In this document: positions 12,373 to 55,946 of the stretch, one piece after another
How the letters are laid out: the number at the start of each line of letters is the position of its first letter
Numbering within the stretch: the first letter of the stretch is position 1
Assembly (NCBI RefSeq): GCF_025717675.1
Contig: NZ_JAJIRT010000001.1
Coordinates: 992,001 to 1,056,000, forward strand
DNA from: Paucibacter sp. DJ2R-2
GTDB taxonomy: Bacteria > Pseudomonadota > Gammaproteobacteria > Burkholderiales > Burkholderiaceae_C
Reading direction: 5' to 3'
Length of the DNA stretch: 64,000 bases
Made by a program: the position numbers and the translations under genes
Notes under the pieces: model-generated
What the model was told of the DNA's origin: nothing
Database searches by the model: none
The model's input: only the letters and a program-made list of their open reading frames with translations

Positions 12373-13089
12373 ATGAGTACCCCCCAACGCTCCCAAGCCC
12401 TCGCCCTGCTGCCCGACAAAGGCCTGCCCGAGCTGCTGTTTCTGTTGCTGCACGGTGCCGGCGCCGACGCCGCGCAGATGCGGCCGCTGGCGCAGGCCCT
12501 GCGCGCCCAGTACCCGCAGGCGGCCGTGGTGTCCATCAACGGCCCCGAGGCCTTCGACCAGCCCTCCGGCAGCGCTCAATCTAGCAAGGGCCAGCAGTGG
12601 TACTCGCTGCAAGGCGCCAGCGATGACGACCACCCCGAGCGTGTGGCTGCCGCCCTGCCCGGCTTCGTCGCCACCGTGCGCGCCTGGGCTGAGCAGTTCG
12701 ACATGGCCTGGGAACGCGTGGCCCTGGCCGGCTTTTCACAAGGCGCGGTAATGGCTCTGGAAGCAGTGCAAGCCGAGCCACAGCTGGCCGGCCGCGTGCT
12801 GGCCTTCTCGGGCGCCTATGCCCGCCCGCCCGCCCACGCGCCAGATCAGGTCAGCCTGCACATCCTGCACGGCCAACGCGACCCCGTGCTGCCCTACCAG
12901 GACCAGGTGACGGCCGCGCGCCGCCTGGTGCAGCTGGGCGCCGATGTCACCGCCGATGTGCTGCCTGACCTCGGCCACGAGTTGCACGCCGAGCTGATCG
13001 ACCGCGCCATGGAACAGCTGCGCACCTTCGTGCCGGCACGGGTGTGGAAGGCGGCGATGGAGGCGGCCAAGGAACAAAAGCTGGACTAG
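12373..13089 (+). CDS. ypfH: Carboxylesterase/phospholipase-type alpha/beta hydrolase, YpfH-like
   Basis: 238 residues, the size of the compact esterases of the YpfH / phospholipase-carboxylesterase group. The catalytic triad can be placed: nucleophile Ser122 in the elbow GFSQGAV, Asp170 in HGQRDPVLPYQ, and His202 in DLGHELH. An oxyanion-type LLHGAGADAAQM segment lies near residue 26. No signal peptide is seen, so the enzyme is cytoplasmic. E. coli YpfH hydrolyses short acyl esters; the natural substrate is unknown. It is a single gene on the plus strand after the chemoreceptor; no operon is obvious. Confidence 0.82.
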   Translation: MSTPQRSQALALLPDKGLPELLFLLLHGAGADAAQMRPLAQALRAQYPQAAVVSINGPEAFDQPSGSAQSSKGQQWYSLQGASDDDHPERVAAALPGFVATVRAWAEQFDMAWERVALAGFSQGAVMALEAVQAEPQLAGRVLAFSGAYARPPAHAPDQVSLHILHGQRDPVLPYQDQVTAARRLVQLGADVTADVLPDLGHELHAELIDRAMEQLRTFVPARVWKAAMEAAKEQKLD

Positions 13090-14953: not shown

Positions 14954-15373
14954 TCAGCCGCGCCGCCCCAGCCGCTCCATGGCCACCTCGGAGCGGCTGA
15001 AGCCGATCTGTTCGTAAAAGCCCGCGACGCCCTCGCGGCCGGCGCGCAGCACCCAGGTCATTTCCGGGCGATCGCCCATGGCTTGCTGAACCAGAGCGCG
15101 ACCCACACCCCGCCCGCGCTGCGCTTCATCGACCACCAGCATGGAGATATAGCCATTGAAGATGCCGTCCGTGAGTGCGCGCAAAAAGCCGATCACGCGA
15201 TCACCGTCTTCGCCGCGCTCCACCGCCACCAAGGCCAGCTGCGACTGGTTCAGCAAGCGAGCGAACAGCGCGGGGTCGGCCACGCGAGAGGCCCAGCCAT
15301 TGGCGGACAAGAGGGCACGGGCGGCCTCGTGCTCGGCGGGCAGGATGGGACGGATGTGCAGGGTCGTACTCAA
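14954..15373 (-). CDS. GNAT-family N-acetyltransferase
   Basis: 139 residues, a minimal single-domain GNAT. The acetyl-CoA-binding motif A is visible as [20 protein letters not shown], preceded by the strand [16 protein letters not shown] forms the C-terminal strand-helix. Its ATG overlaps the stop of the winged-helix/TPR regulator (15370-15373, ATGA), so the two are translationally coupled and probably cotranscribed. The substrate (small molecule, peptide or protein lysine) cannot be read from the sequence; the coupling suggests a role tied to the regulator, possibly modifying it. Confidence 0.85.
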
Positions 15374-17742
15374 GTCAGCAGCCTTTGCCGCTGCAGGCGA
15401 TTCGAGTCCTCGATACGGGCCAGCACCGCCTTGAACCGGGGCAATTCACGCAGGCTTTGCAGTGCCGGGTCTTGGGCCAACCACCAGCCCCGTCGCCAGC
15501 CCAGGCGCACCGCATCTTCCAGGGCAGCCAGCGCCGCATCAGGCTGGCTGCGCAGGGCAGCGATGCGGGCGCGGTGGTAGCCGGCGGCATGCCAGACGTT
15601 GCCTTGCTTGACATAACGATCGATGTAGGCGGCAGCCTGCGCGATGAAAGGCTCGGCCTTCTCGCCTTGGCCCGCGGCGCTGTAGATGGTGGCCACATCG
15701 AGCAGGATGTGCTGACCCTGGAAGCTCAACCAGTTGTTGTAGAGCGGCACGGGGTCGGCTTGCACCAGACCGATGACAGACTCCAGTGCCTTCAGGGCCA
15801 GGTCTTTCTGACCCAGCAGCAGGCGCAACAGGGCGGCATCGATGACAGCATCGCGCTCGCTGGCCGCTTCTGCGCTCGTGAGCCGCAGCGCTTGCTCCAG
15901 CGCCGCGCGATCACCAGCCTGCACAAACCGATAAGCGGCGGTCACTCGCGCTGAGGCCGGCGTGGCGCTCAAGGCTTGAGATTGGGCGAAGGCCTTGTGT
16001 GCGTCATCCGCCAGGCCGAGATCCAGATACAACCAGGCCAACTGCTGCCAGAGCGGCTCACGCTTGGCATCCAGCAGCAAAGCCTTGCGATAGCCGAGCA
16101 CCGCATCGGCGAGTCGGCCACGCGCGAAACCGAGAATGCCCAAGCCCCAGTGCCCGTTGGCATGCTGTGGCGCCATGGCGATGGCGCGCCGATAGGCCTG
16201 CTCCGCAGCCTCATACTGCCCGGCATGGATGGCAGCCAGGCCGGCGCGATGCTGAATCTGCACCGCCAAAGGGCTCAGCTGCGCGGCCTTGCTGAAAAAG
16301 GGCTGGGCGCGGGCCGGCCAGCCGTCGTCACTCTCATTGCTGCCTGACCAGTTCAGCAGACTGGCGTCACTCGGTGCCTTTTCCAGGGCCTGACTCAACC
16401 AGCGCCGAGCTTCCTCGTGTTGGCTCAGATTGGCCTTGAGATGACCTTGCAGGCCCAGGGCCAGAGCTTGCTCGGGGTCCAGCTGCAAGGCGCGGTCGAT
16501 CAAGGGCTGGGCGCGCGCATCCATGGTGCGAAAACCCAGGCCGCTACCGTAATGGAACTCGGCGATCCAAGTGGCAGCCTGGCCCACATAGGCCAAGGCG
16601 AAGCCGGGGTCAGCGTCGATGGCACGCTGGAAATAGGCGCGGGCCTTCAAGACGCCCTCGATCTGCGCGCTACGCTGGTGGTGCAAACCCAGCAGATACA
16701 GCTCATAGGCATCGGCCAGTGGCATGGGTGCCGCACTGACCGGCAGCGGAGCTACGCCCAGAGCCTGCAAGGCGGCATTGGCGGCGCTGAAGGCCAGACT
16801 GCCCAAGGCGGCGGCCTGGGATTCCAACACATGGTGCCAAAGCAGCTCGCTGTCAGCCGCCCGGTGCAGGCTGAGCTTGAGCTGCAGGCCCTGCTGCCAG
16901 CGCCGCAGCTCACCCCAGAGCACATGGGTCACGGCCAGTTGCTTGGCCTGCGGCGCCAGAGCCTGGGCGCTGCGGAACTGGAAGGAGGTGGAGCGCGCCG
17001 TCACCCGGATCTGCTGATGGCGAGACAGTGCGCCGATCACGCTTTCGGCCAGGCCGTCGGCCAGGGGCTGCTCCAGGTCCTTGGGCGAGACATCATCAAA
17101 AGGAAGGACGGCCAGGGTGATGTCACCGGCCGGCATGCGCGCAGCACGCTGCCAAGCCCACCATCCGCCTGCGCCGAGCAAGGCCGCCGCAGCGGCCGAG
17201 CCGCCGAGCAAAAGACGCCGGCTTGGGACGGATGGCGAGGTAGGGGCGGGGGAGGCAGGAGGGGTGGGCAGCACCAGCGGCGCCACAGCTTGATCGGTCG
17301 CGCGTCGCTTTGGTTCAGGCTCAGGCTGCAAGGGCGCTGATGTCGCCCCCGCAGCCGGGGCAGGAGTGGCAACAGCCACCACTTCGCTGACAGAGGCCAC
17401 CAAGCGGTAACCCTTGCGCGGCACGGTGACGATATACCTCGGCTGACTCGCCTCATCGCCGAGCACGCTGCGCAGCTGTGAGATCGACTGGTACACCGAA
17501 CTAGGGGTTACCACCAGGTCAGCCCAGACCTCGTCGAGCAGCTGATCCAGCGTCACTAGCTGCTGCGGCCGGCGCGCCAGCGCCATCAGCAAGCGCATCT
17601 TGCGCGGCTCCAGCTTGAGCACCTGCTCGCCCCGGCGCAGCTCGTCCAAGACCGGATCGGCCTGCCATTCGCCGATCTGCAGGGTCCGCTCAGCCAAGGA
17701 ATCGACCTCTGCGCCCGGCGTTAAAGACTCGGCCCCGCTCAT
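15370..17742 (-). CDS. Membrane-anchored winged-helix (CadC-like) regulator with TolB-like and TPR regions
   Basis: 790 residues. Residues about 20-118 are an OmpR/PhoB-type winged-helix domain: [40 protein letters not shown], and the typical ending [11 protein letters not shown] Pro/Ala-rich linker leads to one hydrophobic segment about 178-200. The remainder would then be periplasmic: a segment [15 protein letters not shown]...[14 protein letters not shown] as in TolB-like domains of such regulators, then at least seven TPR-like helical repeats (for example [20 protein letters not shown] and [20 protein letters not shown]). CadC/ToxR-like proteins bind DNA directly from the membrane without phosphorylation. 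The gene is divergent from the giant PEP-CTERM gene, with 130 bases between the starts, making that gene a plausible target. Confidence 0.85.
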
Positions 17743-17872
17743 GAGAAGTTCCCGTAAACCATTGATTTCATTGAAAAATAAAACCTTGAGAGAAGCGCAA
17801 GAGTTCCATCAGGACTTATCGGGTGTGGCCGCCGACCATGGCGCCAAATTGACATCACACCAGGGAGCCCCG

Positions 17873-20800
17873 ATGCGCAGCCAGCCGTCTCAGCCAGAGT
17901 TTCAAAGCCACACGCACGACCAGGGCGCCGCGCCGAGCGATTGTGCTGGAGGGCAGCACGAGGCTTGGGGCCCTCGCCCCCCTAACTTGAAGGTAGGCGG
18001 AGTCAGTCATTCTCGACCTTGCGTCCTCACTGGAGATCTCTCAAGACGGAGGCAAGCCGCTGCCACGACCCCAGCAAGGCAAGCCCAGGGCGCGAAGGCT
18101 GCGAAACCCAGGCTGACCCAAATCGCCCTTGCCTTGCTGCCCTTGCTGTACGTCGGCCACGCTCACACCGCCACCGTCACCTGGGTCGGCGGCTCCGAAG
18201 GGAGGTGGAATCTCCCATCCAACTGGAGCGGGAATGCCCTGCCCACGTCATTTGACGACGTGCGCCTTGGGTCGAGCAGCGTCATCATCGAAGGGCCGCA
18301 GGCAGCAGCCAGTCTGATCGGTACCGGCAGAGTGCGTATCAACCAATCCAGCGCCAGCTTGACGCTCGCCGGCCCGGCAGAGCTCGGCAGCTTGGAACTG
18401 GAACTGGGCAGTTTCAACAGCCAAGGCAGCACACGGATCAGCGGGCGCTTGCTGTGGGAGGAAGGCGTTTTGTCAGGCGCTGGCAGCACGCTCGTGCTGG
18501 GGCCATCCCAATTGGGGAGCGGCCTATTTGAGCGGCGCAGCCTCACTGGCGGACACACGCTGACCCTGGCGGGCAACACCGTTCAAGGCGGCAACCATGG
18601 CCAGGACATCAGCGGCGGCAGCCGCATCGTCAACCAAGCCACCTGGACAGATCAGGCGTCAGGCAACATCGATTTCGGATCCTTGCAGTCCAGCACAGGC
18701 CCGAGCAATCACTTCGACAACCAGGGCAGCTTCATCAAGTCAGCCGGTTTCACGACCACATTCATTGACGGTGTTGCGTTCAACAACAGCGGCCGAGTGG
18801 ACGTGAACGCCGGCACCCTGCGCATCCTCGGCGGTGGCAGCAGCACCGGCAGCCTCAATGTGGCCGAAGGCGCCACCTTGGCCTTTGGCAACGGCAGCAC
18901 CTTCGCCCTGGGCCCAGCCGTCACCAATGCCGGCGCCATGACGATCGAGGCCAATGTCCGCGCTGCGCAAGGGCTGCAACTGGCCGGCAACGTCGCCGTG
19001 AACTCGGGCGAGCTGAGCCTCGGTGCGGCCAGCAGTTTCGTCAATGTGAGCCTGAATCGCCTCGGCGCCATCACCTCGTCTGCGCCCCTGCTCGTGACTG
19101 GCAACTTGGACTTGACGGGCGGCTTCCTGAGCGGGTCTGGCACGACACGTTCGACCGGAGAGTTGCGGATTTCGGGCAGCGACAGCAAATTCCTCAACCT
19201 GTCCAACCTGGTCGCGGCCGGCAGCACCCGGCAGACGGGGACGGGGCGTGTGGCGATCGGTAGTCGCATTGAGAACTTGGGGACTTGGTCGGAGCAGGCG
19301 ACGGGCAACAACCTGATCGACGGCATCGGCGGCAGCAGCAGCTTTGAAAACTCAGGCATCTTCAACAAAGACTCCGCCTTCATCACCACCCTGGGTGGCA
19401 ATGGCCTGGTGTTCAACAACACCGGCACGGTGAATGTGAATGCCGGCACCTTGCGCATTGCCGGAGATGGCAGCAGCAGCGGCAGCTTCCATGTGGCTCA
19501 GGGCGCCAGCCTGGTCTTTGGCCCCGGGGCACCCGTGCTCAGCCAGATGTCCAACTACAGCCTGGGGCCGGCTCTGAGCAATGCCGGCACCGTGAAGATC
19601 GAATATGACGGCGTGGTGACCGCGGCCCAGGGCCTGCAACTCAGCGGCAGGACCGAGGTGGAGGGGCGCCTTCGCCTGGATGGCATCAGCAGTTTTGTCG
19701 ACCTGAGCTTGGGCAGCTTTGGCAGCATCAACCAATCGGCCGCACAGCTCGTCACGGGCACCTTGAACTGGTCGGGCGGCGGCCTGAACGGCCCTGGCAG
19801 CACCCGCTCCACCGGCGTGCTCCAACTGGGCGCCAACTTCAAGCAGATGACTGGCGGCCATCTGCTGATCGCAGCCGGCACAACCCAGCAGACGGAGCGC
19901 GGCGCGATCCGCATGTTTGACACCTCGCGCATCCTGAACCTGGGCACATGGACGGACCAGGCCATTGCCGACACCTTCATCTCCGGCGGTCGCTTCGACA
20001 ACGAAGGCGTCTTCAACAAAACCACGAACACCCACACCGTGCTGGGTGGCAACGACGGGGTGTTCAACAACAGCGGCAGCGTCAACGTCAACGCCGGCAC
20101 CCTGCGCATCTTCGGCGGCGGCAGCAGCACCGGCAGCATCCAGGTGGCTGAAGGCGCCACCTTGGCCTTTGGCAACAGCCCCGCCTTCGCCCTGGGCCCA
20201 GCCTTCACCAATGCCGGCGCCGTGACGATCGACGGCAATGTCGGCGCTGCGCAAGGGCTGCAGCTGGCCGGAAACGTCGCCGTGAACTCGGGCGAGCTGA
20301 GCCTCGGTGCGGCCAGCAGCTTCGTCAATTTGAGCCTGAATGGCTTGGGCGCTGTCAGCTCGTCTGCGCCCCTGCTCGTGACCGGCCACTTGGATTTGAC
20401 CGGCGGCTTTTTGAACGGCTCCGGCACGACACGTTCGACCGGAGAGTTGCGGATTTCGGGCAGCGACAGCAAATTCCTCAACCTGTCCAATCTGGTCGTG
20501 GCCGGCAGCACCCGGCAGACGGGCACGGGGCGTGTGGCGATCGGGGGCGCTGTTCAGAACTTGGGGACTTGGTCGGAGCAGGCGACGGGCAACAACCTGA
20601 TCGACGGCATCGGCGGCAGCAGCAGCTTTGAAAACTCAGGCATCTTCAACAAAGACTCCGCCTTCATCACCACCCTGGGTGGCAATGGCCTGGTGTTCAA
20701 CAACACCGGCACGGTGAATGTGAATGCCGGCACCTTGCGCATTGCCGGAGATGGCAGCAGCAGCGGCAGCTTCCATGTGGCTCAGGGCGCCAGCCTGGTC

Positions 20801-23800
20801 TTTGGCCCCGGGGCACCCGTGCTCAGCCAGATGTCCAACTACAGCCTGGGGCCGGCTCTGAGCAATGCCGGCACCGTGAAGATCGAATATGACGGCGTGG
20901 TGACCGCGGCCCAGGGCCTGCAACTCAGCGGCAGGACCGAGGTGGAGGGGCGCCTTCGCCTGGATGGCATCAGCAGTTTTGTCGACCTGAGCTTGGGCAG
21001 CTTTGGCAGCATCAACCAATCGGCCGCACAGCTCGTCACGGGCACCTTGAACTGGTCGGGCGGCGGCCTGAACGGCCCTGGCAGCACCCGCTCCACCGGC
21101 GTGCTCCAACTGGGCGCCAACTTCAAGCAGATGACTGGCGGCCATCTGCTGATCGCAGCCGGCACAACCCAGCAGACGGAGCGCGGCGCGATCCGCATGT
21201 TTGACACCTCGCGCATCCTGAACCTGGGCACATGGACGGACCAGGCCATTGCCGACACCTTCATCTCCGGCGGTCGCTTCGACAACGAAGGCGTCTTCAA
21301 CAAAACCACGAACACCCGCACCGTGCTGGGTGGCAACGACGGGGTGTTCAACAACAGCGGCACCATCCATATTCAAGCCGGCAAGCTGCACCTGTTCAAC
21401 GGTTTCAACAACCAGGGCCTGATCCAGATCGCCAGCGGCGCCACGCTGCACGGCGAGCACGCCAGCTTTGCCAATGCCGGCACCCTGGCCGGCTCGGGCA
21501 CCGTGCGCGCTTTGGACACCCTCTCCAACACCGGCATCCTGGCCCCCGGCGGGGTCGGCCAAATCGGCCAGTTGCAGGTGGCGGGCAACTTGGCGACCCG
21601 CGGCAGCTTGCAGGTCGAGCTGGGCCGCAGCAGCGCCGACGTTCTGGCGATCAGTGGCAATGCGGACTTGGGCGGCACGCTGAATTTCTCCGTGCTCAGT
21701 GGCCAGCGCCTCGCGCGGGGCAGCAGCTTCACCGTCGTGAGCTGGGGCCAGCGCAGCGCCGGTAGCGAGTTCGCCAGCCTGGACTTCTCCCAGGCTTCGG
21801 GCTACCGCTTTGCCACGGCCTACGGCGCGACCGGCCTGGACGTGACCGTCACGGCCGTGCCCTTCAACTGGACCGGCCCGGCCAGCGGCGGCTTCTGGGA
21901 CGTGACACAAAACTGGAACGACGGCATCGATGGCCGGCCCCAGGCAGGCGACACGGTACTGCTGGGCAGCGCCAACACCGTGATCCGCTCCGTCCAGCCC
22001 ATGCAGGCCGCCACGGTCACGGGCACGGGTCTGCTGACCATCAATTCAGGCGGCACTCTCGATCTGAGCGACAGCGCCAGCCTGGGCCGCCTGAACCTCA
22101 GCGGCAGCTTGAACAACGCCGGTCGCGTGGTCGTCGTTGGGGGCAGCACCCTGAGCGGCGCCATCCTCAGCGGTGCCGGCACCACGCGCTATGAAGGCGC
22201 GCTCAACATCTCGGGCAACCGGTCGCTCCTGGGCAGCGGACACACCCTCGAACTGGCGGGCACTACCACCGTGCAGGGGAACACCATCACTGGCCTGTCC
22301 GTTGGCTCCGGTGGGCGCATCGTCAACCAAGGATCATGGGTGGAGGCCGCCAGCGGCAACACCAGTTGGAGCGGCAACGGCGGCGCCAGCGTCTTTGACA
22401 ACCAGGGCAGCTTCACCAAGACCAGCAACACCACCACGACCATCGGCAGCTTTGGCCTGACCTTCAACAACAGCGGTAGCGTCAACGTCGATGCCGGCAC
22501 CTTGAGCCTGGTCGGCGGCGGCGCCAGCACCGGGCAGATTGACATCGCCAGCGGCGCCACGCTGGACTTCGCCGGCAGCGCCACTTACAACCTGAACCGC
22601 GCTGTGAACAACGCCGGCACCTTCCAGGTCCGTGGCGGCATCGTCAACGCGCAGGACGGCCTGGCGCTGGGCGGCAGCACCGTCATCAGCGGCGGCCAGC
22701 TCAATCTGAGCGGCAGCAGCCAGTTCGACAGCTTCAACTTCGCCGGCGGCACGCTCAACAACAATGGCACGCTGGTGGTGAGCGGCCCCACGATCTGGGG
22801 CGGCAGCACGCTCACTGGCAGTGGCAACACCCGACTGGAAGGCCCGCTGAGCCTGGAAAGCTCCCGTATCACAGTCTCCGCCGGCACCCTGGTGCTGGCC
22901 GGCACCACCAGCCAAACCGGCACCGGGGGCATCAACACCAACGGCGCCGGCGCTCGCATCATCAATGAAGGCAGCTGGATTGAGCAGGCGAATGGCGCGC
23001 TGAGCATGGGCGGGGCTGGGGCCACCCACTTCGACAACCCCGGCAGCTTCAGCAAAACCAGCGCCTTCACCACCACCATCGGCAGCTCCGGGCTGGCCTT
23101 CAACAACACCGGCACGGTCAAGGTCGATGCCGGCACGCTGGCCCTGGTGGGCGGCGGCAACAGCCCCGGCCAGTTCAAGGTGGCCGCTGGCAGTACGCTG
23201 CAGTTCGGTGGCGGCACGATGGCGCTGGGCAAGGCGGTCAGCAATGCCGGCACCGTGCGGGTCAGCAACGGCATCGTCAACGCGGCCGATGGTCTGGTGT
23301 TGGGGGGCAGCACGGTCATCAGCGGTGGCACGCTGAATCTGGGCGGCAGCAGCCAGTTCGAACGCTTCGATTTCGTCGGCGGCGGCAGTCTCAACAACAG
23401 CGGCAGCCTCGTCGTCACCGGGCCGACCACCTGGGGCGGAAGCGTGTTCAGCGGCACAGGCAGCACAAGGCTGCAAGGGCCCCTGAGCCTGGTTGGTGCG
23501 TCCAGCAACACGATCACCAGCGGCACCCTGGTGCTGGCCGGCACCACCACCCAAACCGGCACCGGCAATGTCAACACTTCCGGCGGGCGCCTTGTCAACG
23601 AAGGCGTCTGGCTGGAGCAGGCGACGGGCAACACCAGCCTCGGTGGCGGCGGCGCTGCCAGCTTCGAGAACACCGGGCGCTTCAGCAAGACCAGCGCTTT
23701 CACCACGGCCATCGGCAGCTTTGGCACCGCGTTCAAGAACACCGGCACAGTGGACGTGCAGGCCGGCAAGCTGCAAGTGTTTTCGGGCTTCAACAACCAA

Positions 23801-26674
23801 GGCCTGTTGACGATCGCTGCGGGCGCGGAGCTGCACGGCACCAGCAGCGCCTTCACCAACGCCGGTACCCTGGCCGGCGCTGGCACGGTGCGCGCGGCCG
23901 ACCGCCTCAGCAACACCGGCACCCTGGCCCCCGGTGGTGTCGGCCAAGTGGGCCAGCTGCAAGTCCTGGGCAATCTGACCACCAGCGGCAGCTTGCAGGT
24001 CGAGCTGGGCCGCAGCAGCGCCGACGTTCTGGCGATCAGTGGCAATGCGGACTTGGGCGGCACCTTGAATTTCTCCGTGCTCAGCGGCCAGCGCCTCGCG
24101 CGGGGCAGCAGCTTCACCGTCGTGAGCTGGGGCCAGCGCAGCGCCGGCAGCGAGTTCGCCAGCCTGGACTTCTCCCAGGCTTCGGGCTACCGCTTTGCCA
24201 CGGCCTACGGCGCGACCGGCCTGGACGTGACCGTCACGGCCGTGCCCTTCAACTGGACCGGCCCGGCCAGCGGCGGCTTCTGGGACGTGACACAAAACTG
24301 GAACGACGGCATCGATGGCAGGCCGCAAGCGGGCGACACGGTGCTGCTGGGCGGTGCCGACACGCGCCTGCGCACGACCCAGGCGGTGGGCGAGATCACC
24401 GGCACCGGCACGCTGAGCCTGGACGGCGGCAGCCACCTGATCCTGAGCGGCAGCAGCAGTGGCCGTGTTGGCGGCCTGGCGCTGCTGCAGGGCGAACTGA
24501 GCAACCAAGGCCGCTTGGTGGCCAGCGGCGACAGCAGCTGGGTCGGCACCCTCTTGCGCGGCAGCGGCGGCGTCACCCGCGTGGAAGGCAACCTGGCCAT
24601 CGCGGGCCCCAACTTTGATGGCACGCCGACCCTGCTCGACAAGCACACGCTGGAGATGGCAGGCACCACCACCTTCACCGGCCGGCGCGGCCTCTCCATC
24701 GGCCAGGGCTCAAGCCTGGTGAACGAGGGCACTTGGTTGGACAAGGCCAGCGCCAACGTCAACTTCGGTAACTTCAACGGCGGTGCGAACGGTGTCTTCC
24801 TCAACCAGGGCACCTACATCAAGGCCTCGGCCTTCACCACCGAGATCGGCAACGGCCTGAATCTGCATAACACCGGCACGGTCAAGGTCGAAAGTGGCCT
24901 GCTGCGGATCAGCGGCGCCGACAGCAGATCCACCGGGCATCTCGACATCGCTGCGGGCGCTGAGCTCAGCCTGGTGAGCAATGACGCCACGCTGGGCGGC
25001 AGCGTGTTGAACGAAGGCACGCTGAGCCTGGACGGCGGCGTGCTCGCCATCGCAAGCGACCTGCTCGTGCAGGGCAGCGGCCTGACGCGAGTGAAAAGCA
25101 TCGTCAACAACGACAACGCCTTGCGCATCGCCGGCAGCGTCGACTGGCATGAGTCGACCTTGCGCGGCAGCGGCAGCACCCGCATGGACGGCACTGTCAT
25201 GCTGGTCGGCGACCGCAGCCGTGGCGTGCTCGGCGGGCAGACCGTGGAGCTGGCGGGCACCACCCGGCAGGTCGGAACGGGCGGCTTCAGCATTGGCCAA
25301 GGCGCGCGAGTGCGCAATCTGGGCACCTGGTTGGACGAGGCCCCGGGCAATGTGAGCATCGGCAACTTCAACGGCGGCGCGGCCGGCAGCTTCGACAACG
25401 TCGGCACCTTCACCAAGAACTCGGCCTTCGTCACCAACATCGGCAATGGCCTGGTGCTGAACAACACCGGCGCGATCAACATCAACGCCGGCACCTTGCG
25501 CATCAGCGGCGACGCCAGCCTCACGGCCGGGCAAATCCAGATCGCCAGTGGCGCCATGCTCGACCTGGCCAGCGGCAGCATCGCACTCAAGGGCACGGTT
25601 CAGAACGCGGGCAGCTTGGCCCTGAATGGCGCCACGGTGTTGGTCGCGGACAGTGCCACCGTGCAAGGCGGCCTGACAACGCTCAACAGCAGCACGGTCC
25701 ACAACACCGGCCGACTCGTGCTGAGCGGCAACACCGACTGGCTCATCGCCAACCTGGCCGGCAGTGGCAGCACGCGGATGGAGGGCGCCGTCACGCTGTC
25801 GGGCAGCAACGGCCGCGGCTTGACCGGCGGCCATACGCTGGAGTTGGCCGGCAGCACCACGCAGACGGGCACCGGCAGCCTCAACACCGGGGGCGGAGCG
25901 CGCGTGCTCAACCTCGGCAGCTGGATCGAGGCGGCGAACGGCAACGTCAGCTTGGGCAACTTCGCCGGCGGTGCGCTCAGTCGTTTCGACAACGTCGGCA
26001 GCTTCACCAAGACCTCGGCCTTCATCACCGACATCGGCAACGGCCTGGTGTTGAACAACACCGGCAACATCAAGGTCAACGCCGGCACGCTGCGCATCAG
26101 CCAGACCTTCAACAACCAAGGCCAGCTGAACGTGGCGGCCGGCGCGGAAGTTGCCAGCGCCGTCGTGGACTTTGCCAACGCCGGCACCCTGGCCGGCGAC
26201 GGCACGGTGCGCATGGTCAACGCGTTCTCCAGCCTGAGCAACACCGGCATCTTGGCGGCTGGCGGCCTGAACGACGCGGGCACGCTGAGCCTCGTGGGCG
26301 GCCTGACGCAGGAAACCAGCGGCATCTTTCTGGTCGACCTGGGCAGCACGGCGGCCGGCGGCTTTGATGTGCTGACCGTCAGCGGCGCGGCCTCGCTGAC
26401 CGGCACTCTCGCCGTCAATCTGCTGGACGGCGCGCACTTCAATGTGGGCGACAGCTTCACCGTGATGACCTGGAACCAGCGCCTGAACAACAGCCAATTC
26501 GCCAGCCTGGACCTGACGCAGGCCGGCGGCTACGACTTCGCGACCGAGTACGGCGCCAACAGCCTGACGCTGCGGGTGACAACGGCCGTGCCCGAGCCGG
26601 GCAGCTGGGCGCTGATGGCGCTGGGCCTGCTGGGGCTGGGTGCATGGCAGCGCCGTCGTCGCGCCGCGCCTTGA
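17873..26674 (+). CDS. Giant repeat-built PEP-CTERM surface protein (three fused modules)
   Basis: About 2933 residues from ATG 17873, which has GGGAG at 17863-17867; the frame open further upstream overlaps the divergent regulator and is discounted. An unusually long polar leader of about 75 residues precedes a hydrophobic segment ending LLYVGHAHTA near residue 100, an extended signal peptide. Three modules follow, starting near residues 101, 1331 and 2126, each opening with a W-x-G...G-x-W-x(4)-NW motif and closing with a FASLD...TAVP-like segment. Eleven copies of an F(D/E)N-x-G-x-F-x-K...FNN(T/S)G...AGTL repeat occur. The C-terminus is VPEPGSWALMALGLLGLG with a basic tail, a PEP-CTERM sorting signal cut by an exosortase. 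There is no autotransporter barrel. Probable exported, surface or matrix-associated beta-solenoid protein. Confidence 0.85.
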   Translation: MRSQPSQPEFQSHTHDQGAAPSDCAGGQHEAWGPRPPNLKVGGVSHSRPCVLTGDLSRRRQAAATTPARQAQGAKAAKPRLTQIALALLPLLYVGHAHTATVTWVGGSEGRWNLPSNWSGNALPTSFDDVRLGSSSVIIEGPQAAASLIGTGRVRINQSSASLTLAGPAELGSLELELGSFNSQGSTRISGRLLWEEGVLSGAGSTLVLGPSQLGSGLFERRSLTGGHTLTLAGNTVQGGNHGQDISGGSRIVNQATWTDQASGNIDFGSLQSSTGPSNHFDNQGSFIKSAGFTTTFIDGVAFNNSGRVDVNAGTLRILGGGSSTGSLNVAEGATLAFGNGSTFALGPAVTNAGAMTIEANVRAAQGLQLAGNVAVNSGELSLGAASSFVNVSLNRLGAITSSAPLLVTGNLDLTGGFLSGSGTTRSTGELRISGSDSKFLNLSNLVAAGSTRQTGTGRVAIGSRIENLGTWSEQATGNNLIDGIGGSSSFENSGIFNKDSAFITTLGGNGLVFNNTGTVNVNAGTLRIAGDGSSSGSFHVAQGASLVFGPGAPVLSQMSNYSLGPALSNAGTVKIEYDGVVTAAQGLQLSGRTEVEGRLRLDGISSFVDLSLGSFGSINQSAAQLVTGTLNWSGGGLNGPGSTRSTGVLQLGANFKQMTGGHLLIAAGTTQQTERGAIRMFDTSRILNLGTWTDQAIADTFISGGRFDNEGVFNKTTNTHTVLGGNDGVFNNSGSVNVNAGTLRIFGGGSSTGSIQVAEGATLAFGNSPAFALGPAFTNAGAVTIDGNVGAAQGLQLAGNVAVNSGELSLGAASSFVNLSLNGLGAVSSSAPLLVTGHLDLTGGFLNGSGTTRSTGELRISGSDSKFLNLSNLVVAGSTRQTGTGRVAIGGAVQNLGTWSEQATGNNLIDGIGGSSSFENSGIFNKDSAFITTLGGNGLVFNNTGTVNVNAGTLRIAGDGSSSGSFHVAQGASLVFGPGAPVLSQMSNYSLGPALSNAGTVKIEYDGVVTAAQGLQLSGRTEVEGRLRLDGISSFVDLSLGSFGSINQSAAQLVTGTLNWSGGGLNGPGSTRSTGVLQLGANFKQMTGGHLLIAAGTTQQTERGAIRMFDTSRILNLGTWTDQAIADTFISGGRFDNEGVFNKTTNTRTVLGGNDGVFNNSGTIHIQAGKLHLFNGFNNQGLIQIASGATLHGEHASFANAGTLAGSGTVRALDTLSNTGILAPGGVGQIGQLQVAGNLATRGSLQVELGRSSADVLAISGNADLGGTLNFSVLSGQRLARGSSFTVVSWGQRSAGSEFASLDFSQASGYRFATAYGATGLDVTVTAVPFNWTGPASGGFWDVTQNWNDGIDGRPQAGDTVLLGSANTVIRSVQPMQAATVTGTGLLTINSGGTLDLSDSASLGRLNLSGSLNNAGRVVVVGGSTLSGAILSGAGTTRYEGALNISGNRSLLGSGHTLELAGTTTVQGNTITGLSVGSGGRIVNQGSWVEAASGNTSWSGNGGASVFDNQGSFTKTSNTTTTIGSFGLTFNNSGSVNVDAGTLSLVGGGASTGQIDIASGATLDFAGSATYNLNRAVNNAGTFQVRGGIVNAQDGLALGGSTVISGGQLNLSGSSQFDSFNFAGGTLNNNGTLVVSGPTIWGGSTLTGSGNTRLEGPLSLESSRITVSAGTLVLAGTTSQTGTGGINTNGAGARIINEGSWIEQANGALSMGGAGATHFDNPGSFSKTSAFTTTIGSSGLAFNNTGTVKVDAGTLALVGGGNSPGQFKVAAGSTLQFGGGTMALGKAVSNAGTVRVSNGIVNAADGLVLGGSTVISGGTLNLGGSSQFERFDFVGGGSLNNSGSLVVTGPTTWGGSVFSGTGSTRLQGPLSLVGASSNTITSGTLVLAGTTTQTGTGNVNTSGGRLVNEGVWLEQATGNTSLGGGGAASFENTGRFSKTSAFTTAIGSFGTAFKNTGTVDVQAGKLQVFSGFNNQGLLTIAAGAELHGTSSAFTNAGTLAGAGTVRAADRLSNTGTLAPGGVGQVGQLQVLGNLTTSGSLQVELGRSSADVLAISGNADLGGTLNFSVLSGQRLARGSSFTVVSWGQRSAGSEFASLDFSQASGYRFATAYGATGLDVTVTAVPFNWTGPASGGFWDVTQNWNDGIDGRPQAGDTVLLGGADTRLRTTQAVGEITGTGTLSLDGGSHLILSGSSSGRVGGLALLQGELSNQGRLVASGDSSWVGTLLRGSGGVTRVEGNLAIAGPNFDGTPTLLDKHTLEMAGTTTFTGRRGLSIGQGSSLVNEGTWLDKASANVNFGNFNGGANGVFLNQGTYIKASAFTTEIGNGLNLHNTGTVKVESGLLRISGADSRSTGHLDIAAGAELSLVSNDATLGGSVLNEGTLSLDGGVLAIASDLLVQGSGLTRVKSIVNNDNALRIAGSVDWHESTLRGSGSTRMDGTVMLVGDRSRGVLGGQTVELAGTTRQVGTGGFSIGQGARVRNLGTWLDEAPGNVSIGNFNGGAAGSFDNVGTFTKNSAFVTNIGNGLVLNNTGAININAGTLRISGDASLTAGQIQIASGAMLDLASGSIALKGTVQNAGSLALNGATVLVADSATVQGGLTTLNSSTVHNTGRLVLSGNTDWLIANLAGSGSTRMEGAVTLSGSNGRGLTGGHTLELAGSTTQTGTGSLNTGGGARVLNLGSWIEAANGNVSLGNFAGGALSRFDNVGSFTKTSAFITDIGNGLVLNNTGNIKVNAGTLRISQTFNNQGQLNVAAGAEVASAVVDFANAGTLAGDGTVRMVNAFSSLSNTGILAAGGLNDAGTLSLVGGLTQETSGIFLVDLGSTAAGGFDVLTVSGAASLTGTLAVNLLDGAHFNVGDSFTVMTWNQRLNNSQFASLDLTQAGGYDFATEYGANSLTLRVTTAVPEPGSWALMALGLLGLGAWQRRRRAAP
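18799..20082 (+). repeat. 1284-bp internal repeat unit, copy 1 of the giant PEP-CTERM gene
   Basis: This segment encodes 428 residues beginning NVNAGTLRI and recurs immediately downstream at 20083-21366 with an exact offset of 1284 bases. The 5' part (18799-19273) differs from copy 2 by scattered substitutions. The 3' part (19274-20078) matches 20558-21362 with one difference seen by eye, at 20034 (A) against 21318 (G), giving His against Arg. Confidence 0.85.
20083..21366 (+). repeat. 1284-bp internal repeat unit, copy 2
   Basis: Second tandem copy of the 428-residue unit, in frame. It is close to identical to copy 1 from 20558 to 21362 and more diverged before that, which suggests a duplication followed by later homogenisation of the 3' half. 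The right boundary is approximate because the sequence leaves the repeat within the AACAACAGCGGCA segment. Confidence 0.8.
21608..21968 (+). repeat. Module-end repeat, copy 1
   Basis: About 360 bases encoding the end of module 1 and the beginning of module 2 (LQVELGRSSADVLAISGN through the GGFWDVTQNW motif). The same stretch recurs at 23993-24353, offset 2385 bases, with about ten base differences by eye. The repeat spans the join between modules, so the join itself was copied. Confidence 0.8.
23993..24353 (+). repeat. Module-end repeat, copy 2
   Basis: Second copy of the 360-base segment at 21608-21968, spanning the join between modules 2 and 3. Differences cluster at the far right end (around 24325-24350), where the two copies start to diverge. 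Confidence 0.8.
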
Positions 26675-28455: not shown

Positions 28456-31167
28456 ATGAAAGCGTTCACCCTCAAACACACCGCCCTTGCCTTGGCGCTC
28501 GCGCTGGCCAGCGCCCAGGGTGCTTGGGCCGGCACCAGCACAGTGGCGCTCACCGGCAGCGCCGCGCCTGGTACGGGCAACGGGGTGAGCTTCGCCAGCC
28601 TCAGCACGCCGCAGCTCAACGCCGCCGGCCAGGTGGCGTTCTTGGCCACGCTCAGCGGGGCTGGCGTCAGCGGCAGCAACGATGGCGGCATTTGGCGCGA
28701 CGGGACCCTGCTCGTGCGTAAGGGCAGCGCAGCCCCCGGCGCGGGCAGCGGGGTGAGCTTGTCCACCTTGAGTTCGATGCAGCTCAACGCAGCCGGCCAG
28801 GTCACGTACTCGGCTCTTCTCAGCGGCACGAACATCACGCCGGATAAGAACGACAGCAGCCTCTGGCTCGGCAGCAAGCTGATCGCCCAGACCGGCAGAG
28901 CGGCTCCCGGCACAGGCAGCGGCGTGAGCTTCGCTTTCCTGGGCGGCGGGATGCTTAACTCGGCGGGTCAAGTGGCCTACCGGGCTCAGCTCAGCGGCAC
29001 TGGCGTCAACACGAGCAATGATTTCGGCATATGGCGTGACAACAGCATGATCGTGCGCGAAGGCAGCGCAGCACCAGGCACAGGCAGCGGTGTGAACTTC
29101 GCCGTCGCGATCCTTTCAGATTTCAACGCGGCGGGTCAGGTGGCCTACCAGGCTAACCTCACTGGCAGCTCGCTGAACGATTCCAGCATCTGGCGAGACA
29201 GTGACTTGATCGCCCGCGAAGGCAACGCGGCCCCCGGCACCGTCGCCGGCGTGAGCTTTGGCAACCTAACGTCGACTCGGCTTAACGCGGCCGGCCAAGT
29301 GGCCTTCCGGGCTGGACTCACCGGCACAGGTGTGAACTCCTTCAACAATGACAGCATCTGGCGTGGCAGCAGCTTGATCGCTCGAACAGGAGACGCCGCC
29401 CCCGGCACGGGCACCGGAGTGAGCTTCGCGGAATTTGCCGGCATCAGCGACCCACTGAAATTGAATGCAGCGGGCCAAGTGGCATTCATGGCGACTCTGA
29501 GAGGCGATGGCGTTTCCGAGAGCAACGAGCGCGGCATTTGGCGCGACGACAAGCTGATCGCCCGCACAGGCGACGCTGCACCAGGCACCGCCACCTTCAA
29601 GTCCTTGTCGGCGCACCAGCTCAATGCCGGTGGCCAGGTGGCCTTCAGAGCCACCCTTGACGGGGTAGGCAGCACCGGCCATTACCTGGGAGACGGCCAG
29701 GAGATCATTCAGGTCGCTCGCACGGGCGACGCGCTCGCGGGCTCCACCATCAGCTCACTGGCACCCTTCGGCGTGAGCTTCAACGACAAAGCCCAACTCG
29801 CTTACCAGGCCACCCTGGCCGACGGGCGCAGCGGCGTGTTCTTGTTCACCCCCACGCTGCACTGGCGCAGCAGCACCGGCGGCAGCTGGGACGACGCCGC
29901 CAAATGGACACTGGGCCTGAACCCGGGCGATGTGTATGACGTGGCCCTTGATGCAGCCAACAGCCTGCGCATCACCGGCCCCACCGGCGCGGTGATGCTG
30001 AAGTCCCTGCAAGTCGGCACCGGCGCCGGCCTGGTGACGCTGCAGATGGCCGGCGGCTCCTTCGACGCGGCGGACCCCGTGGTGATCGGCCCGCGCGGCG
30101 TCCTGACCGGCACAGGCAGCTTCTCGCGCCTGGTGATCAACCAGGGCACGGTGCAGGCCGAGCGTCTGGTGATGAGCGAGAGCCTGAGCAACGCCGGCCT
30201 GCTGCGCGGCGTGGCCGGTGGCCCGCGCCAAGGCGCAGGCCTGGAGGCCGACCTGCTCAACCAAGCCAGCGGCCGCGTGCTGGTGCAGCCCGGCGAAACC
30301 CTGCAGCTGCGCGGCGCCAGCCACCGCAATCTGGGCGTGTTCGAGATCAACCAGGGCCGGCTGGAAATGGCGGGCAGCCTGCTCAACGGCAGCGGCGGCC
30401 TGATCGACCTGAACGGCGCCACCGCCCTGGCCAGCGGCGCCTGGAGCAATGCCGCCGGCGCGCGCATCCTTCTGGGCAACGCCCGGCTGACGGTCAGCGG
30501 CGGGCTCAGCAATTCAGGCCAGCTGCTGGTCACTTCGGGCGATAGCGATGTGTTCGGCGACCTGAGCAACGAGAAGGGCGGGCAGATCATCTTGTCGGGC
30601 CAGGGCAGCACCACCTTCTACGACGCCGTGGAGCTGCAGGCGAACAGCGAGCTGCGCACTTCGGCCGGCGCCACCGCCGTGTTCTTCGGCGCCGTGGCGC
30701 AGCGCAGCGGCGCCTTGCTCAGCGGCACAGGGCACAAATACTTCGAAGGCGGCTTCAGCGTCGGCAACTCACCCGGCCTGGGCGAGGACGGCGGCGATGT
30801 CAGCTTTGGCGCCGCCAACGTCTATCTCGCCGAGATCGGTGGCACCGAGCTGGGAAGCAGTTATGACCACTACCGCGTGGCCGGCACGCTGACCCTGGGC
30901 GGCACGCTCAAGCTCGCCTCCTTCGCCGGCTTCAGCGGCCAGGCGGGGCAGAGCTTCGACCTGTTCGACTGGGGCAGCTTGCAGGGCCAGTTCAGCAATA
31001 TCGACAGCAGCGGCCTGCTGCTGGCCGAAGGCACGCAGCTCGATTTGTCGCGCCTCTACCTCGACGGCGTGATCGGCGTGACGGCCGTGCCCGAGCCCTC
31101 GCAATGGGCTTTGATGCTGCTGGGCGGCGTGAGCTTGCTGTCCTGGCGCCGGCGCCCGTTGCGCTGA
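28456..31167 (+). CDS. PEP-CTERM protein with NxxGxxAF tandem repeats
   Basis: 903 residues with a clear signal peptide (LALALALASAQGAWA) and GGAG at 28447-28450 before the ATG. Residues about 28-455 hold eight copies of a repeat of roughly 50-60 residues centred on LNAAGQVAF (variants VTY, VAY, LNAGGQVAF), each with GIWRD or SIWRD and ending in a G(S/D)AAPGTG segment. This is the pattern of the choice-of-anchor NxxGxxAF family. From about 468 the protein switches to the W...GGSWDDAAKW motif and Gly/Asn-rich beta repeats like those of the giant protein, then ends TAVPEPSQWALMLLGGVSLL plus Arg residues, a PEP-CTERM signal. It is probably secreted and anchored or released by exosortase. Function unknown. 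Confidence 0.85.
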   Translation: MKAFTLKHTALALALALASAQGAWAGTSTVALTGSAAPGTGNGVSFASLSTPQLNAAGQVAFLATLSGAGVSGSNDGGIWRDGTLLVRKGSAAPGAGSGVSLSTLSSMQLNAAGQVTYSALLSGTNITPDKNDSSLWLGSKLIAQTGRAAPGTGSGVSFAFLGGGMLNSAGQVAYRAQLSGTGVNTSNDFGIWRDNSMIVREGSAAPGTGSGVNFAVAILSDFNAAGQVAYQANLTGSSLNDSSIWRDSDLIAREGNAAPGTVAGVSFGNLTSTRLNAAGQVAFRAGLTGTGVNSFNNDSIWRGSSLIARTGDAAPGTGTGVSFAEFAGISDPLKLNAAGQVAFMATLRGDGVSESNERGIWRDDKLIARTGDAAPGTATFKSLSAHQLNAGGQVAFRATLDGVGSTGHYLGDGQEIIQVARTGDALAGSTISSLAPFGVSFNDKAQLAYQATLADGRSGVFLFTPTLHWRSSTGGSWDDAAKWTLGLNPGDVYDVALDAANSLRITGPTGAVMLKSLQVGTGAGLVTLQMAGGSFDAADPVVIGPRGVLTGTGSFSRLVINQGTVQAERLVMSESLSNAGLLRGVAGGPRQGAGLEADLLNQASGRVLVQPGETLQLRGASHRNLGVFEINQGRLEMAGSLLNGSGGLIDLNGATALASGAWSNAAGARILLGNARLTVSGGLSNSGQLLVTSGDSDVFGDLSNEKGGQIILSGQGSTTFYDAVELQANSELRTSAGATAVFFGAVAQRSGALLSGTGHKYFEGGFSVGNSPGLGEDGGDVSFGAANVYLAEIGGTELGSSYDHYRVAGTLTLGGTLKLASFAGFSGQAGQSFDLFDWGSLQGQFSNIDSSGLLLAEGTQLDLSRLYLDGVIGVTAVPEPSQWALMLLGGVSLLSWRRRPLR

Positions 31168-31212
31168 GCCAAGCCGCCGCCAGCCAAGCGGCCGACTTGG
31201 CGGTGAACGATG

Positions 31213-32916
31213 TCAGTCGAGCACGACTTCCGTGCGCACCGTGCCCGCCCGATCGGCGCTGGCGGTAAGCGCCAGCCGCGTGCCCTTGGGCGCGCGCACC
31301 ACCCACTCGCCGATGGCGCGGTCGGCGGTCAGCTCGCGGCTGGCCAGGAAGGCGAGCTGCGAGCTCTTGGGCGCATGGCCTTCCAGCTGCGGGCCTTCCA
31401 TGCGCTCCTTGCCACTGACCAGGCTGACCGTGGCATCGCCGGGCGGCAGGTGGATCTCGAACATCACGCCGCGCACCACTTTGCGCTCCAAGGCGCGTTG
31501 GGTCACATAAGCCGGCAGATAGCCGCTGTTGGCTACTGCCAGGCGGATGCGCCAGCTGTCGGGGCCGAGCGCGCGCACTTCGGTGCGCAGCAGCTCCAGC
31601 TTGGGCAGGCTGAGCGCGATCTGGTTCATCCAGGCCGGGAAGCGCGCGGCCTCGCGCTCGCGCAGGGCGGGCGGCGGGTTGCGCCAGTAGTTCATCTTGT
31701 CCCAGCCGCCGATCTCGACCTGGCCCAGCTGCGGGTGCAGAAAGGGCTTCCAGTCCACATGGGCCAGGCCACCGCATTGCTCGTCGCTCCATTTGAGCAG
31801 TTTGAGGTCGTCCTCCACGGGGTGGTCGCGGTACCAGTCGATCCACTTGTAGCCCTCAATGCCGGCTTCCTTGTTGGGCGACCAGAGCTCAACCACCCAG
31901 AACAAGGCGCCCAGGTGTTCGTAGACCCAGTCCTGCGTGCCGGTGATGACATCCTTGGGGTGGTACTTGAAGTCGTGCCAGATGCTGACGGCGGGGTAGC
32001 CGCTGAGCTTTTCGCCCAGAGCCGAGAAGCGTTTGTAGCTCCACAGGTCCTCGGGGATCATGTCCTCGTCGCTCTGCGAACCCATGGGCCGCAGGATCAC
32101 GCCGCTGTGGGTGTGGAAGCTGATGGCCGCGCCGATGTTCGGGTGGCTGCTGATGAACTCCACCATGGCCCGCACCTCGGGTTCGCTGGTCGGGAAGGGG
32201 CCGGCGCCCAGCTGCTTGTACTCCTGCCGCCATTCGCTGGGGAAGTTGCGGTTCAGGTCCAGGCCTTCGCGGTCCTTGTTGACGGTGACGGTCAGGCCGT
32301 CGTGGTTCTTGATGAAACCCTCGGGGATCAGGCGGTAGTAGTCGCCGCCGAACTCGCCGGGCTCGCGCGCCACCATCAGGCGCGGCTCGGTCGGGTGTTT
32401 TTTGTAGGTGCCATGCGGGTCGGGCACGCGCATGCTGAGGATGCGGCCGTCGCCGTCCACGTCTTCGGGCGTCAGGCCGTCGACCGGGTGCTCGTCATAG
32501 GGATAGGGCCGGGTGCTGGAGCGGATGTGGCGGGGCCGGTCGGCCAGGGCCAGCTCGGCGCCGTCGGGATTCAGGCGCGGCACCATATAGATGACCCGGC
32601 TGTCGAGCAGGTAGGTGATCTGCGGGTCAACCGCAAAACCGCTGAGCAGCTGGTGCAGGTAGTACAGGCAGGTGGTCGAGGCGGTCAGCTCGGCGGCGTG
32701 GATGTTGCCGTCCAGCCAGAAGGCGGGCTTGTCGATGTCGGCGCCGCTGGCGGTGTTGGTCAGCACCAGCACCCAGATGTCGCGGCCTTCATGGCTGCGG
32801 CCGATGGAGCGCACCGAGACCAGATTGGGCCGCGCTTCGGCGTAGGCGAACAGCAGCTCGGTGAGGGCGTCGTAGCGGTAGAACTGGTCGAATCGGGGGG
32901 TGGGCAAGGCGGCCAT
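31213..32916 (-). CDS. M14-family zinc carboxypeptidase
   Basis: 567 residues. The N-terminal catalytic domain has the zinc motif GNIHAAE (His73, Glu76), a further His in SFHTHSGV, substrate-binding LDLNRNFPSEW, and a late Glu in FWVVELWSPNKE that fits the general-base position. The region MVPRLNPDGAELAL is also typical. The C-terminal 150 residues form an all-beta accessory domain (RIRLAVANSGYLPAYVT, VMFEIHLPPGDATVSLV). No signal peptide is visible, so it is probably cytoplasmic. It would remove C-terminal residues from peptides. It is convergent with the PEP-CTERM gene, with 45 bases between the stops. Confidence 0.88.
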   Translation of the reverse strand: MAALPTPRFDQFYRYDALTELLFAYAEARPNLVSVRSIGRSHEGRDIWVLVLTNTASGADIDKPAFWLDGNIHAAELTASTTCLYYLHQLLSGFAVDPQITYLLDSRVIYMVPRLNPDGAELALADRPRHIRSSTRPYPYDEHPVDGLTPEDVDGDGRILSMRVPDPHGTYKKHPTEPRLMVAREPGEFGGDYYRLIPEGFIKNHDGLTVTVNKDREGLDLNRNFPSEWRQEYKQLGAGPFPTSEPEVRAMVEFISSHPNIGAAISFHTHSGVILRPMGSQSDEDMIPEDLWSYKRFSALGEKLSGYPAVSIWHDFKYHPKDVITGTQDWVYEHLGALFWVVELWSPNKEAGIEGYKWIDWYRDHPVEDDLKLLKWSDEQCGGLAHVDWKPFLHPQLGQVEIGGWDKMNYWRNPPPALREREAARFPAWMNQIALSLPKLELLRTEVRALGPDSWRIRLAVANSGYLPAYVTQRALERKVVRGVMFEIHLPPGDATVSLVSGKERMEGPQLEGHAPKSSQLAFLASRELTADRAIGEWVVRAPKGTRLALTASADRAGTVRTEVVLD

Positions 32917-33016
32917 GGCTGATCGTGGGTGTGCGGGTGCGGCTCATTGTGCCGAAAGCGCGCGACCCATGCCCCCAGGGCTGACCCTGCCACAGCATTC
33001 CGCTTCGCCCGGTGCC

Positions 33017-33790: not shown

Positions 33791-33826
33791 GGGCATTCCT
33801 TGCTCGGCAATGTATCTTTGAGATTC

Positions 33827-38193: not shown

Positions 38194-38198
38194 CAAAC

Positions 38199-55742: not shown

Positions 55743-55814
55743 GCCGAACATCATAAGTTGCCCCAGCCCGCCCCAATTGCAAGCAAATGCACGCACCCAA
55801 GCCCCAAGCCCGAC

Positions 55815-55904: not shown

Positions 55905-55946
55905 CCCCACACCCCTTGCCCCGCCCCCGCCCGTAGAATTCCCCCC

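What the first reader, a model, noticed from the sequence alone, without database searches (positions are those of the whole stretch)
17873..26674. Giant PEP-CTERM protein formed by fusing three complete modules, with joins exactly at the sorting-signal site
Seen: modules open with a W-x-G...G-x-W-x(4)-NW motif near residues 101, 1331 and 2126. Each ends with a FASLD...TAVP segment. At the true C-terminus TAVP continues into EPGSW (Pro2907-Glu-Pro), a PEP-CTERM signal; at the two internal joins it continues into FNWTG instead, at residues 1330/1331 and 2125/2126. Known: PEP-CTERM begins V-P-E-P and is cut by exosortase. Inference: three single-module genes merged by recombination at the sorting signal, so only the last signal remains and one very long chain is anchored.
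Basis: partly seen in the sequence, partly recalled or inferred. Interest (0 to 1): 0.7.

Follow-up and report, generated by a model that had tools for sequence, protein, structure and literature searches.

The report
Mosaic three-rod bacterial surface protein
A very long bacterial surface protein appears to have been patched together by recombination between a one-rod gene and a two-rod gene from related species, which shows how such proteins can grow in whole units; it was probably not made by fusing three genes at their anchoring signals.

Summary
In detail: one 2933-aa frame with three HEAD-repeats-CAP modules and one C-terminal PEP-CTERM signal. The proposed origin is only partly right. 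Two same-genus genomes carry two-module versions with a join at the same point, between matching neighbours, and a Methylophilaceae MAG carries a distant one: the join is old. Another genus (G219) has a one-module PEP-CTERM gene whose body is the closest relative found of our MIDDLE module. The window gene alternates between the two types. Leader and middle body match G219 at ordinary divergence (4-fold-site identity 71-81%; flanks 60-80%). Module 1, both joins and module 3 match the two-module gene G006 at 84-94%, flanks 57-72%. Switches lie at the signal-peptide end, inside a HEAD, inside a CAP and possibly in the sorting signal, not at the internal joins. Both joins are copies of a pre-existing join; "TAVP" there is not conserved in relatives. 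Verdict: a cassette-built mosaic PEP-CTERM giant. Its role, an extracellular beta-solenoid adhesin or matrix protein, is inferred.

The parts
17873..26674 (+). giant PEP-CTERM gene, 2933 aa, three modules
   Evidence: conserved ATG with a GGGAG stretch just upstream, shared with G219
17873..18167 (+). long leader and signal-peptide region (aa 1-~99), G219 (one-module) type; followed by switch B1
   Evidence: 30-residue windows starting at aa 1-76: 57-70% to G219 in 5 of 6 (one 37%), 23-30% to G006 in the first 5 and 57% in the sixth; B1 at window ~18167/18168, 89 of 94 informative sites fit, 0 of 2000 shuffles
18170..21862 (+). module 1 (aa 100-1330), G006 (two-module) type in its front, its fourth repeat and its end; repeats 3 and 5 have no close counterpart in G006
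   Evidence: 4-fold-site identity to G006 91.8 / 94.4 / 88.0% in three stretches; repeats 3 and 5 only 50-55% aa to G006
18778..20078 (+). first copy of the two-repeat tandem duplication inside module 1
   Evidence: 96.2% identical to the second copy
20062..21362 (+). second copy of that tandem duplication
21848..21880 (+). join 1 (TAVP|FNWTG, aa 1330/1331)
21971..23923 (+). middle-module body (aa ~1367-2017), G219 (one-module) type, between switches B2 (window ~21969-21974) and B3 (~23922/23923, graded)
   Evidence: 69.1% aa, 4-fold 70.8% to G219 (aa 1367-1990); B2 75 of 90 and B3 193 of 235 informative sites fit a single switch, 0 of 2000 shuffles each
24233..24265 (+). join 2 (aa 2125/2126), a copy of join 1
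   Evidence: 9 nt differences from join 1 over 121 codons, each synonymous (codons 1245-1365 of the list)
24248..26590 (+). module 3 (aa 2126-2906), G006 type, with terminal-type CAP
   Evidence: 4-fold 90.6% to G006 (aa 2130-2912), 85.3% to G003 (aa 2340-2912); CAP 93% to the G006 terminal CAP
26585..26656 (+). PEP-CTERM sorting signal (aa 2905-2928); possible switch B4 at window ~26602-26605
   Evidence: PF07589 28.2 bits; B4 73 of 90 informative sites; tail from PEPGSW on 20/27 residues like G219, 15/27 G003, 11/27 G006, ungapped

Best explanation
The gene encodes an exported, PEP-CTERM-sorted surface protein built of three beta-solenoid rods in series. Each rod is HEAD (W-x-G...NW), about 200-aa repeats, and a C-terminal CAP. 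It is a mosaic. A resident one-module gene of the kind seen in G219 supplied the upstream DNA, leader, signal peptide, middle body and possibly the last part of the sorting signal. A two-module gene of the kind seen in Paucibacter oligotrophus CHU3 (G006) supplied module 1, both CAP-HEAD joins and module 3. Homologous recombination inside the conserved HEAD and CAP inserted or kept the resident body in frame between two copies of a pre-existing join. Module 1 was further lengthened by tandem duplication of two repeats. Shown: the architecture, the mosaic and an exchange more recent than the divergence of the flanks. Inferred: the order of events, donor direction (two-module clade to window lineage), the two exchanges needed, and the role (one long chain held by one sorting signal in the extracellular matrix or on the surface, acting in adhesion or aggregation).
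For: Architecture and single PF07589. One-module gene L142/G219, 960 aa, PF07589 25.3 bits; among 399 genomes G219 is the only other one that matches the middle body above 50% identity (69% over residues 2-630 of 630), two others matching at 36-42%. Two-module genes in G003 and G006 (identified with the named records by equal contig lengths and equal frames) and in a Methylophilaceae MAG. Block-wise similarity switches. 4-fold-site identity to G006: five stretches of modules 1, 3 and joins 87.1-94.4%, core of join 1 84.1% and of join 2 91.2%; five flanking genes 57.3-72.4%. To G219: middle body 70.8%, leader 80.6%; six flanking genes 59.8-80.1%. Intergenic DNA and leader start shared with G219. 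Switch tests B1-B4, 0 of 2000 shuffles each. CAP tree of 41 rows: internal CAPs incl. the MAG's together (93/82), terminal CAPs incl. L142 together (100/98), sister to each other (88/75). Direction: module 3 is closer between G000 and G006 (90.6%) than its latter part is between G006 and G003 (84.6%) or G000 and G003 (85.3%), whereas 3 of 4 flanking genes put G003 with G006 (77.6, 83.5, 79.4% against 58.3, 72.4, 70.9% for G000-G006). AF2 model of aa 1940-2933: mean pLDDT 85.2, nearly all beta, with an inner confidence dip at and after join 2 (model residues ~181-220), so the join is probably a loose linker. Exosortase PF09721: 3 matches in the genome; 70 PEP-CTERM matches.
Against: Direction of transfer is not settled for module 1: G003's module 1 is diverged from both (G006-G003 4-fold 59.5%), so G006 could have received it. 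The fourth flanking gene (12373-13089) does not group G003 with G006 at 4-fold sites (63.3% against 67.0% for G000-G006), though it does by protein (91.8 against 78.4%). B4 is weak, because G006's own tail is aberrant (PF07589 17.9 bits, under the cut-off). Sites where the window gene matches neither relative were set aside (6, 15, 27, 16 for B1-B4), and the shuffles treat sites as independent. G006 is not the donor itself: two repeats of module 1 have no close counterpart there. No intermediate (module 1 + middle body only) was seen in the listed matches. Duplicate use of the join needs two exchanges or a duplication step. Two of the three supports cited from the CAP tree (93/82 and 88/75) are under its 95/80 mark. 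A simple scan for TTTACA and a sigma-54-like box upstream found none. Solved-structure fold matches are weak (best E 9.4e-4, TM 0.15/0.30). Middle-module close relatives come from a single genome.
Confidence: 0.78

Rival explanations
1. Three one-module PEP-CTERM genes merged by recombination exactly at their sorting signals.
For: TAVP stands at both joins and at the end; codons ACG GCC GTG CCC are identical at all three places in the window gene. 29 of 38 terminal CAPs surveyed run into A-V-P-E-P. Tandem pairs of one-module PEP-CTERM genes exist in relatives (L052, L043).
Against: Middle CAP is internal-type; joins are copies of one older join; switches lie inside HEAD and CAP. G003 (GLP) and the MAG (GFN) lack TAVP at the join, and both, like G219, have an extra residue before VPEP at the end. 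0 of 16 joins in 9 other multi-module frames show VP. Internal and terminal CAPs are sisters with moderate support, which fits duplication in one lineage at least as well as fusion of unrelated genes.
Confidence: 0.07
2. The three-module form is ancestral; G003/G006 lost the middle module by recombination between the two near-identical joins, and G219 lost modules 1 and 3.
For: Recombination between the joins would delete exactly one module. Heads, caps and leaders are homologous.
Against: Under plain shared descent modules 1 and 3 should differ from G006 as flanks do (57-72% at 4-fold sites) but are 84-94%. The distant MAG is also two-module. G219 would need two separate deletions between poorly similar sequences.
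Confidence: 0.12
3. Assembly artefact: repeats copied or chimeric contig.
For: The genome is in 47 contigs, and codons 469-720 / 897-1148 have 0 nt differences. Contigs C44 and C47 end inside similar genes.
Against: The frame stays open through all copies. The two joins differ at 9 nt and the tandem copies at 51 nt in their first part, and the foreign-looking parts are about 93% and not 100% like G006. Contig C1 is 1.66 Mb; contamination 0.09%.
Confidence: 0.03

Closest known systems
PEP-CTERM / exosortase (EpsH) sorted proteins (Haft et al. 2006, PMC1569441; passages seen)
   Same: C-terminal PEP motif, hydrophobic stretch, Arg-rich end; many paralogues in one genome; exosortase genes present
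   Different: three large modules in series; mosaic of two types of gene; no TTTACA or sigma-54-like box upstream by a simple scan (the paper found its motif before 99 of 167 proteobacterial genes)
One-module HEAD-repeats-CAP PEP-CTERM proteins of the family (e.g. L142/G219, 960 aa)
   Same: same HEAD, ~200-aa repeats, CAP and PEP-CTERM; L142 is the nearest relative found of the middle module and leader
   Different: one module; the window gene has three, with internal-type CAPs at the joins
Giant beta-solenoid surface proteins of fructophilic lactic acid bacteria (PMC12863079; abstract parts and passages seen)
   Same: very large extracellular proteins with beta-solenoid domains that diversify by intragenic recombination and exchange between genera
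   Different: other bacteria; the passages seen mention neither PEP-CTERM nor module-wise CAP/HEAD joins
Autotransporter passenger beta-helices (e.g. antigen 43, Hap, IcsA; fold matches)
   Same: long beta-helix rod by the predicted model
   Different: weak fold scores; no beta-barrel translocator hit; PEP-CTERM end instead

Membership tests
PEP-CTERM proteins | C-terminal PEP-CTERM homology domain (PF07589 / TIGR02595) | tested here: met
   28.2 bits vs 20.7; 21.3 vs 16
PEP-CTERM proteins | N-terminal signal peptide | tested here: inconclusive
   hydrophobic stretch LTQIALALLPLLYVGHAHTA after a ~80-residue leader, shared with G219; no signal-peptide predictor was run
PEP-CTERM proteins | exosortase encoded in the same genome | tested here: met
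   PF09721, 3 matches over cut-off in G000, one of them partial
PEP-CTERM proteins | cleavage at the PEP motif and surface or matrix retention | not testable with these tools
   needs protein work
Autotransporters (type V secretion) | C-terminal beta-barrel translocator domain | tested here: not met
   no such family among the 3 Pfam hits at E<=1; the C-terminus is PEP-CTERM
Autotransporters (type V secretion) | beta-helical passenger | tested here: inconclusive
   nearly all-beta model, pLDDT 85.2, but weak PDB matches

The most novel reading that the evidence does not exclude
HEAD and CAP act as standing recombination handles, so that whole rods move between species as in-frame cassettes while each host keeps its own address labels (leader and signal peptide in front, sorting tail behind). 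Besides the window gene (B1 at the signal-peptide end, the weaker B4 in the sorting signal), G003 and G006 show the same pattern at the front: their signal peptides agree at 70 of 78 nt, the next 60 codons at only 96 of 180 nt. The number of rods, and so the reach of the surface protein, would be an exchangeable trait.
Probability: 0.35. Interest if true: 0.6.

Novelty: new variant of a known kind. Interest (0 to 1): 0.42.

Why it matters
Fewer than 10% of PEP-CTERM proteins matched any Pfam family in the founding paper (PMC1569441, passage), and in the listings of my four paper searches I saw no account of how giant members arise. This locus offers one-, two- and three-module states between shared neighbours, with pieces of clearly different divergence, so growth of a giant surface protein can be read step by step. 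It also warns that matching residues at a join (TAVP) can mislead about where the join was made.

Tried and rejected
Self-comparison by blastp printed nothing for all four proteins, although repeats are plainly present; I took it as a faulty setting and did not use it.

First frames chosen for flanking genes 31210-32922+, 32900-34333+ and 6241-8712- gave 88-99% 4-fold identity with 48-71% aa identity, i.e. the wrong strand; they were replaced by 31213-32916-, 33017-33796- and 6247-9564+ and not used as background. In one search the rows for 33827-34981-, 34978-36462- and 36117-37241- hit overlapping stretches of each relative (one of them a histidine kinase; 40-64% aa) and were left out of the background ranges.

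'Only internal duplication made the third module' was my first reading; it was dropped when the one-module L142 turned up.

The PDB sequence search with the five-row alignment gave 0 matches. Pfam and NCBIfam gave over-cut-off hits only to the sorting signal; the others are under their cut-offs.

The relic reading of TAVP for the OLDEST join cannot be excluded: A-V-P-E-P is the usual end after a CAP (29 of 38), and outgroups may have drifted.

Full report
Observation. The frame window:17873-26674 gives 2933 residues. In addition, module 1 contains a tandem duplication with a 428-residue offset (96.2% identical DNA), and the two joins lie in a 633-nt repeat of 87.9% identity.

Relatives. A search with the two C-terminal modules over 59 genomes matched 22, the window genome included. 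Two same-genus genomes carry long versions, G003 (1483-aa frame) and G006 (1575-aa frame). Both have two modules and one join: VTGLPYTWTG in G003, VTAVPFNWTG in G006. By equal contig lengths and equal frames they are the Paucibacter sp. TC2R-5 and Paucibacter oligotrophus CHU3 records. The same call adds a Methylophilaceae MAG with a two-module version of 1560 aa whose join reads MKGFNFYWSG. In the genus, 11 of 18 genomes match the join query, 8 of these 11 only through its CAP side.

Survey of the family. A profile of the join matched 37 of 299 genomes of the family and 25 of 399 of the order (the samples overlap). I fetched 61 stretches, chosen by hand from the matches, and scanned 60 of them (the G219 locus as L142, not again as L182) together with three named loci. 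After removing three duplicate loci, one search counted 38 terminal CAPs, 35 with VPEP; the other three end in VPEL (L160), IPEP (L174) or nothing like a sorting tail (L144). It counted 29 closed frames with one CAP at the end. There were 19 internal joins: 3 in the two-module family and 16 in 9 other frames. None of the 16 has VP just before the head.

The one-module relative. L142 (G219, another genus of the family) is a closed 960-aa frame with one HEAD, three repeats (by eye), one CAP and PEP-CTERM. Its body is the best match of our middle module (69% over residues 2-630 of 630; 4 of 399 genomes matched at E<=1e-20, one of them the window genome). Its leader and upstream DNA align with those of the window gene.

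Mosaic. Window by window the protein changes partner: G219 for residues 1 to about 99, then G006 to about 1366 (with repeats 3 and 5 of module 1 unlike either), G219 to about 2000, then G006. DNA matches agree: 15368-18184 continuous with G219 at 79.2%, 18103-19480 with G006 at 93.0%, 21868-24247 with G219 at 75.6%, 23793-26613 with G006 at 92.6%. At sites where G006 and G219 differ and the window gene matches one of them, one switch explains 89 of 94 (B1), 75 of 90 (B2), 193 of 235 (B3) and 73 of 90 (B4) sites; none of 2000 shuffles reached these values. B3 is a graded switch over tens of codons rather than a sharp point. B4 depends on a short tail and an aberrant G006 end.

Timing. Fourfold-site identity of the window gene to G006 is 87.1-94.4% in five stretches of modules 1, 3 and joins, and 84.1 and 91.2% in the cores of joins 1 and 2. 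In five flanking genes it is 67.0, 58.3, 57.3, 72.4 and 70.9%. To G219 the middle body has 70.8% and the leader 80.6%; six flanking genes have 65.3, 66.5, 80.1, 59.8, 70.8 and 69.9%. So the G006-like parts were exchanged after the flanks had diverged, and the G219-like parts are about as old as the neighbourhood. The shared neighbours (window 12.4-13.1, 15.4-17.7 and 31.2-32.9 kb in G006 and G219; 12.4-13.1 and 31.2-32.9 kb in G003) lie on both sides of the gene in each relative, with local rearrangement.

The joins. Join 1 and join 2 differ at 9 of 363 nt. Join 1 differs from the G006 join at 18 nt, join 2 at 11. The CAP before join 2 is internal-type (87% to CAP 1, 83% to the G006 internal CAP, 53% to the terminal CAP). 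The CAP tree separates internal from terminal CAPs, with the MAG's two CAPs split between them. The two-module architecture therefore predates the split of these lineages or was passed on whole. Whether the very first join came from fusing two genes at a PEP-CTERM site or from duplication within one gene stays open; the sister relation of the two CAP groups (88/75) fits duplication slightly better.

Structure and role. The AF2 model of aa 1940-2933 (5-row alignment) is an almost purely beta chain (mean pLDDT 85.2, pTM 0.65). Confidence dips at and after join 2 and again in the C-terminal tail, which holds the one helix of four or more residues, in the PEP-CTERM segment. PDB matches are weak, and the best-ranked ones are beta-helix domains and autotransporter passengers. 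The genome has three exosortase matches and 70 PEP-CTERM matches at E<=0.001. PepA, a PEP-CTERM protein of Aquincola, is involved in floc formation (PMC9850573, abstract seen). By analogy I infer a matrix or surface adhesin with added reach from serial rods; this is inference.

Literature. Searches: PEP-CTERM + exosortase (39 papers, 25 listed); two of PEP-CTERM / repeat / giant protein (847 papers, 15 listed); Paucibacter + PEP-CTERM (0 papers); exosortase + recombination + mosaic (3 papers). In these listings I saw no account of module-wise mosaic PEP-CTERM giants; most papers of subscription journals are not in that library. Diversification of giant surface proteins by recombination as such is known (PMC12863079, passages).

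Noticed in passing
window 38102-38195, 55813-55914, 62946-63056: Arrays of 7-8-bp units (GATTCAC, TTCACCNG and their complements), in two of the three places facing each other as inverted pairs. Pattern TTCACNNGTTCACNNGTTCAC: 58 matches in the window genome, 19, 4 and 2 in three others of the genus, 0 in 14 of 18; reversed control 0.
   Followed up: partly
window 28456-31167: A second PEP-CTERM gene (DUF7453 / NxxGxxAF repeats) downstream of the giant on the same strand.
   Followed up: no
L049 (end of contig C44) and L048 (start of contig C47): Two contigs of the window genome end inside a HEAD-type and a CAP-type PEP-CTERM-like gene, possibly one further gene broken by the assembly.
   Followed up: no
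L052 and L043: Pairs of PEP-CTERM genes with single-module features in tandem on one strand in relatives, a possible raw material for fusions.
   Followed up: no
L035, 3' end of the two-module gene: The sorting tail of G006 is aberrant (PF07589 17.9 bits, under the cut-off 20.7); it may be failing as an anchor.
   Followed up: no
window 18110-18200 versus L034/L035: G003 and G006 share the signal peptide (70 of 78 nt) but not the following 60 codons (96 of 180 nt), a second module-swap boundary at the same place.
   Followed up: yes
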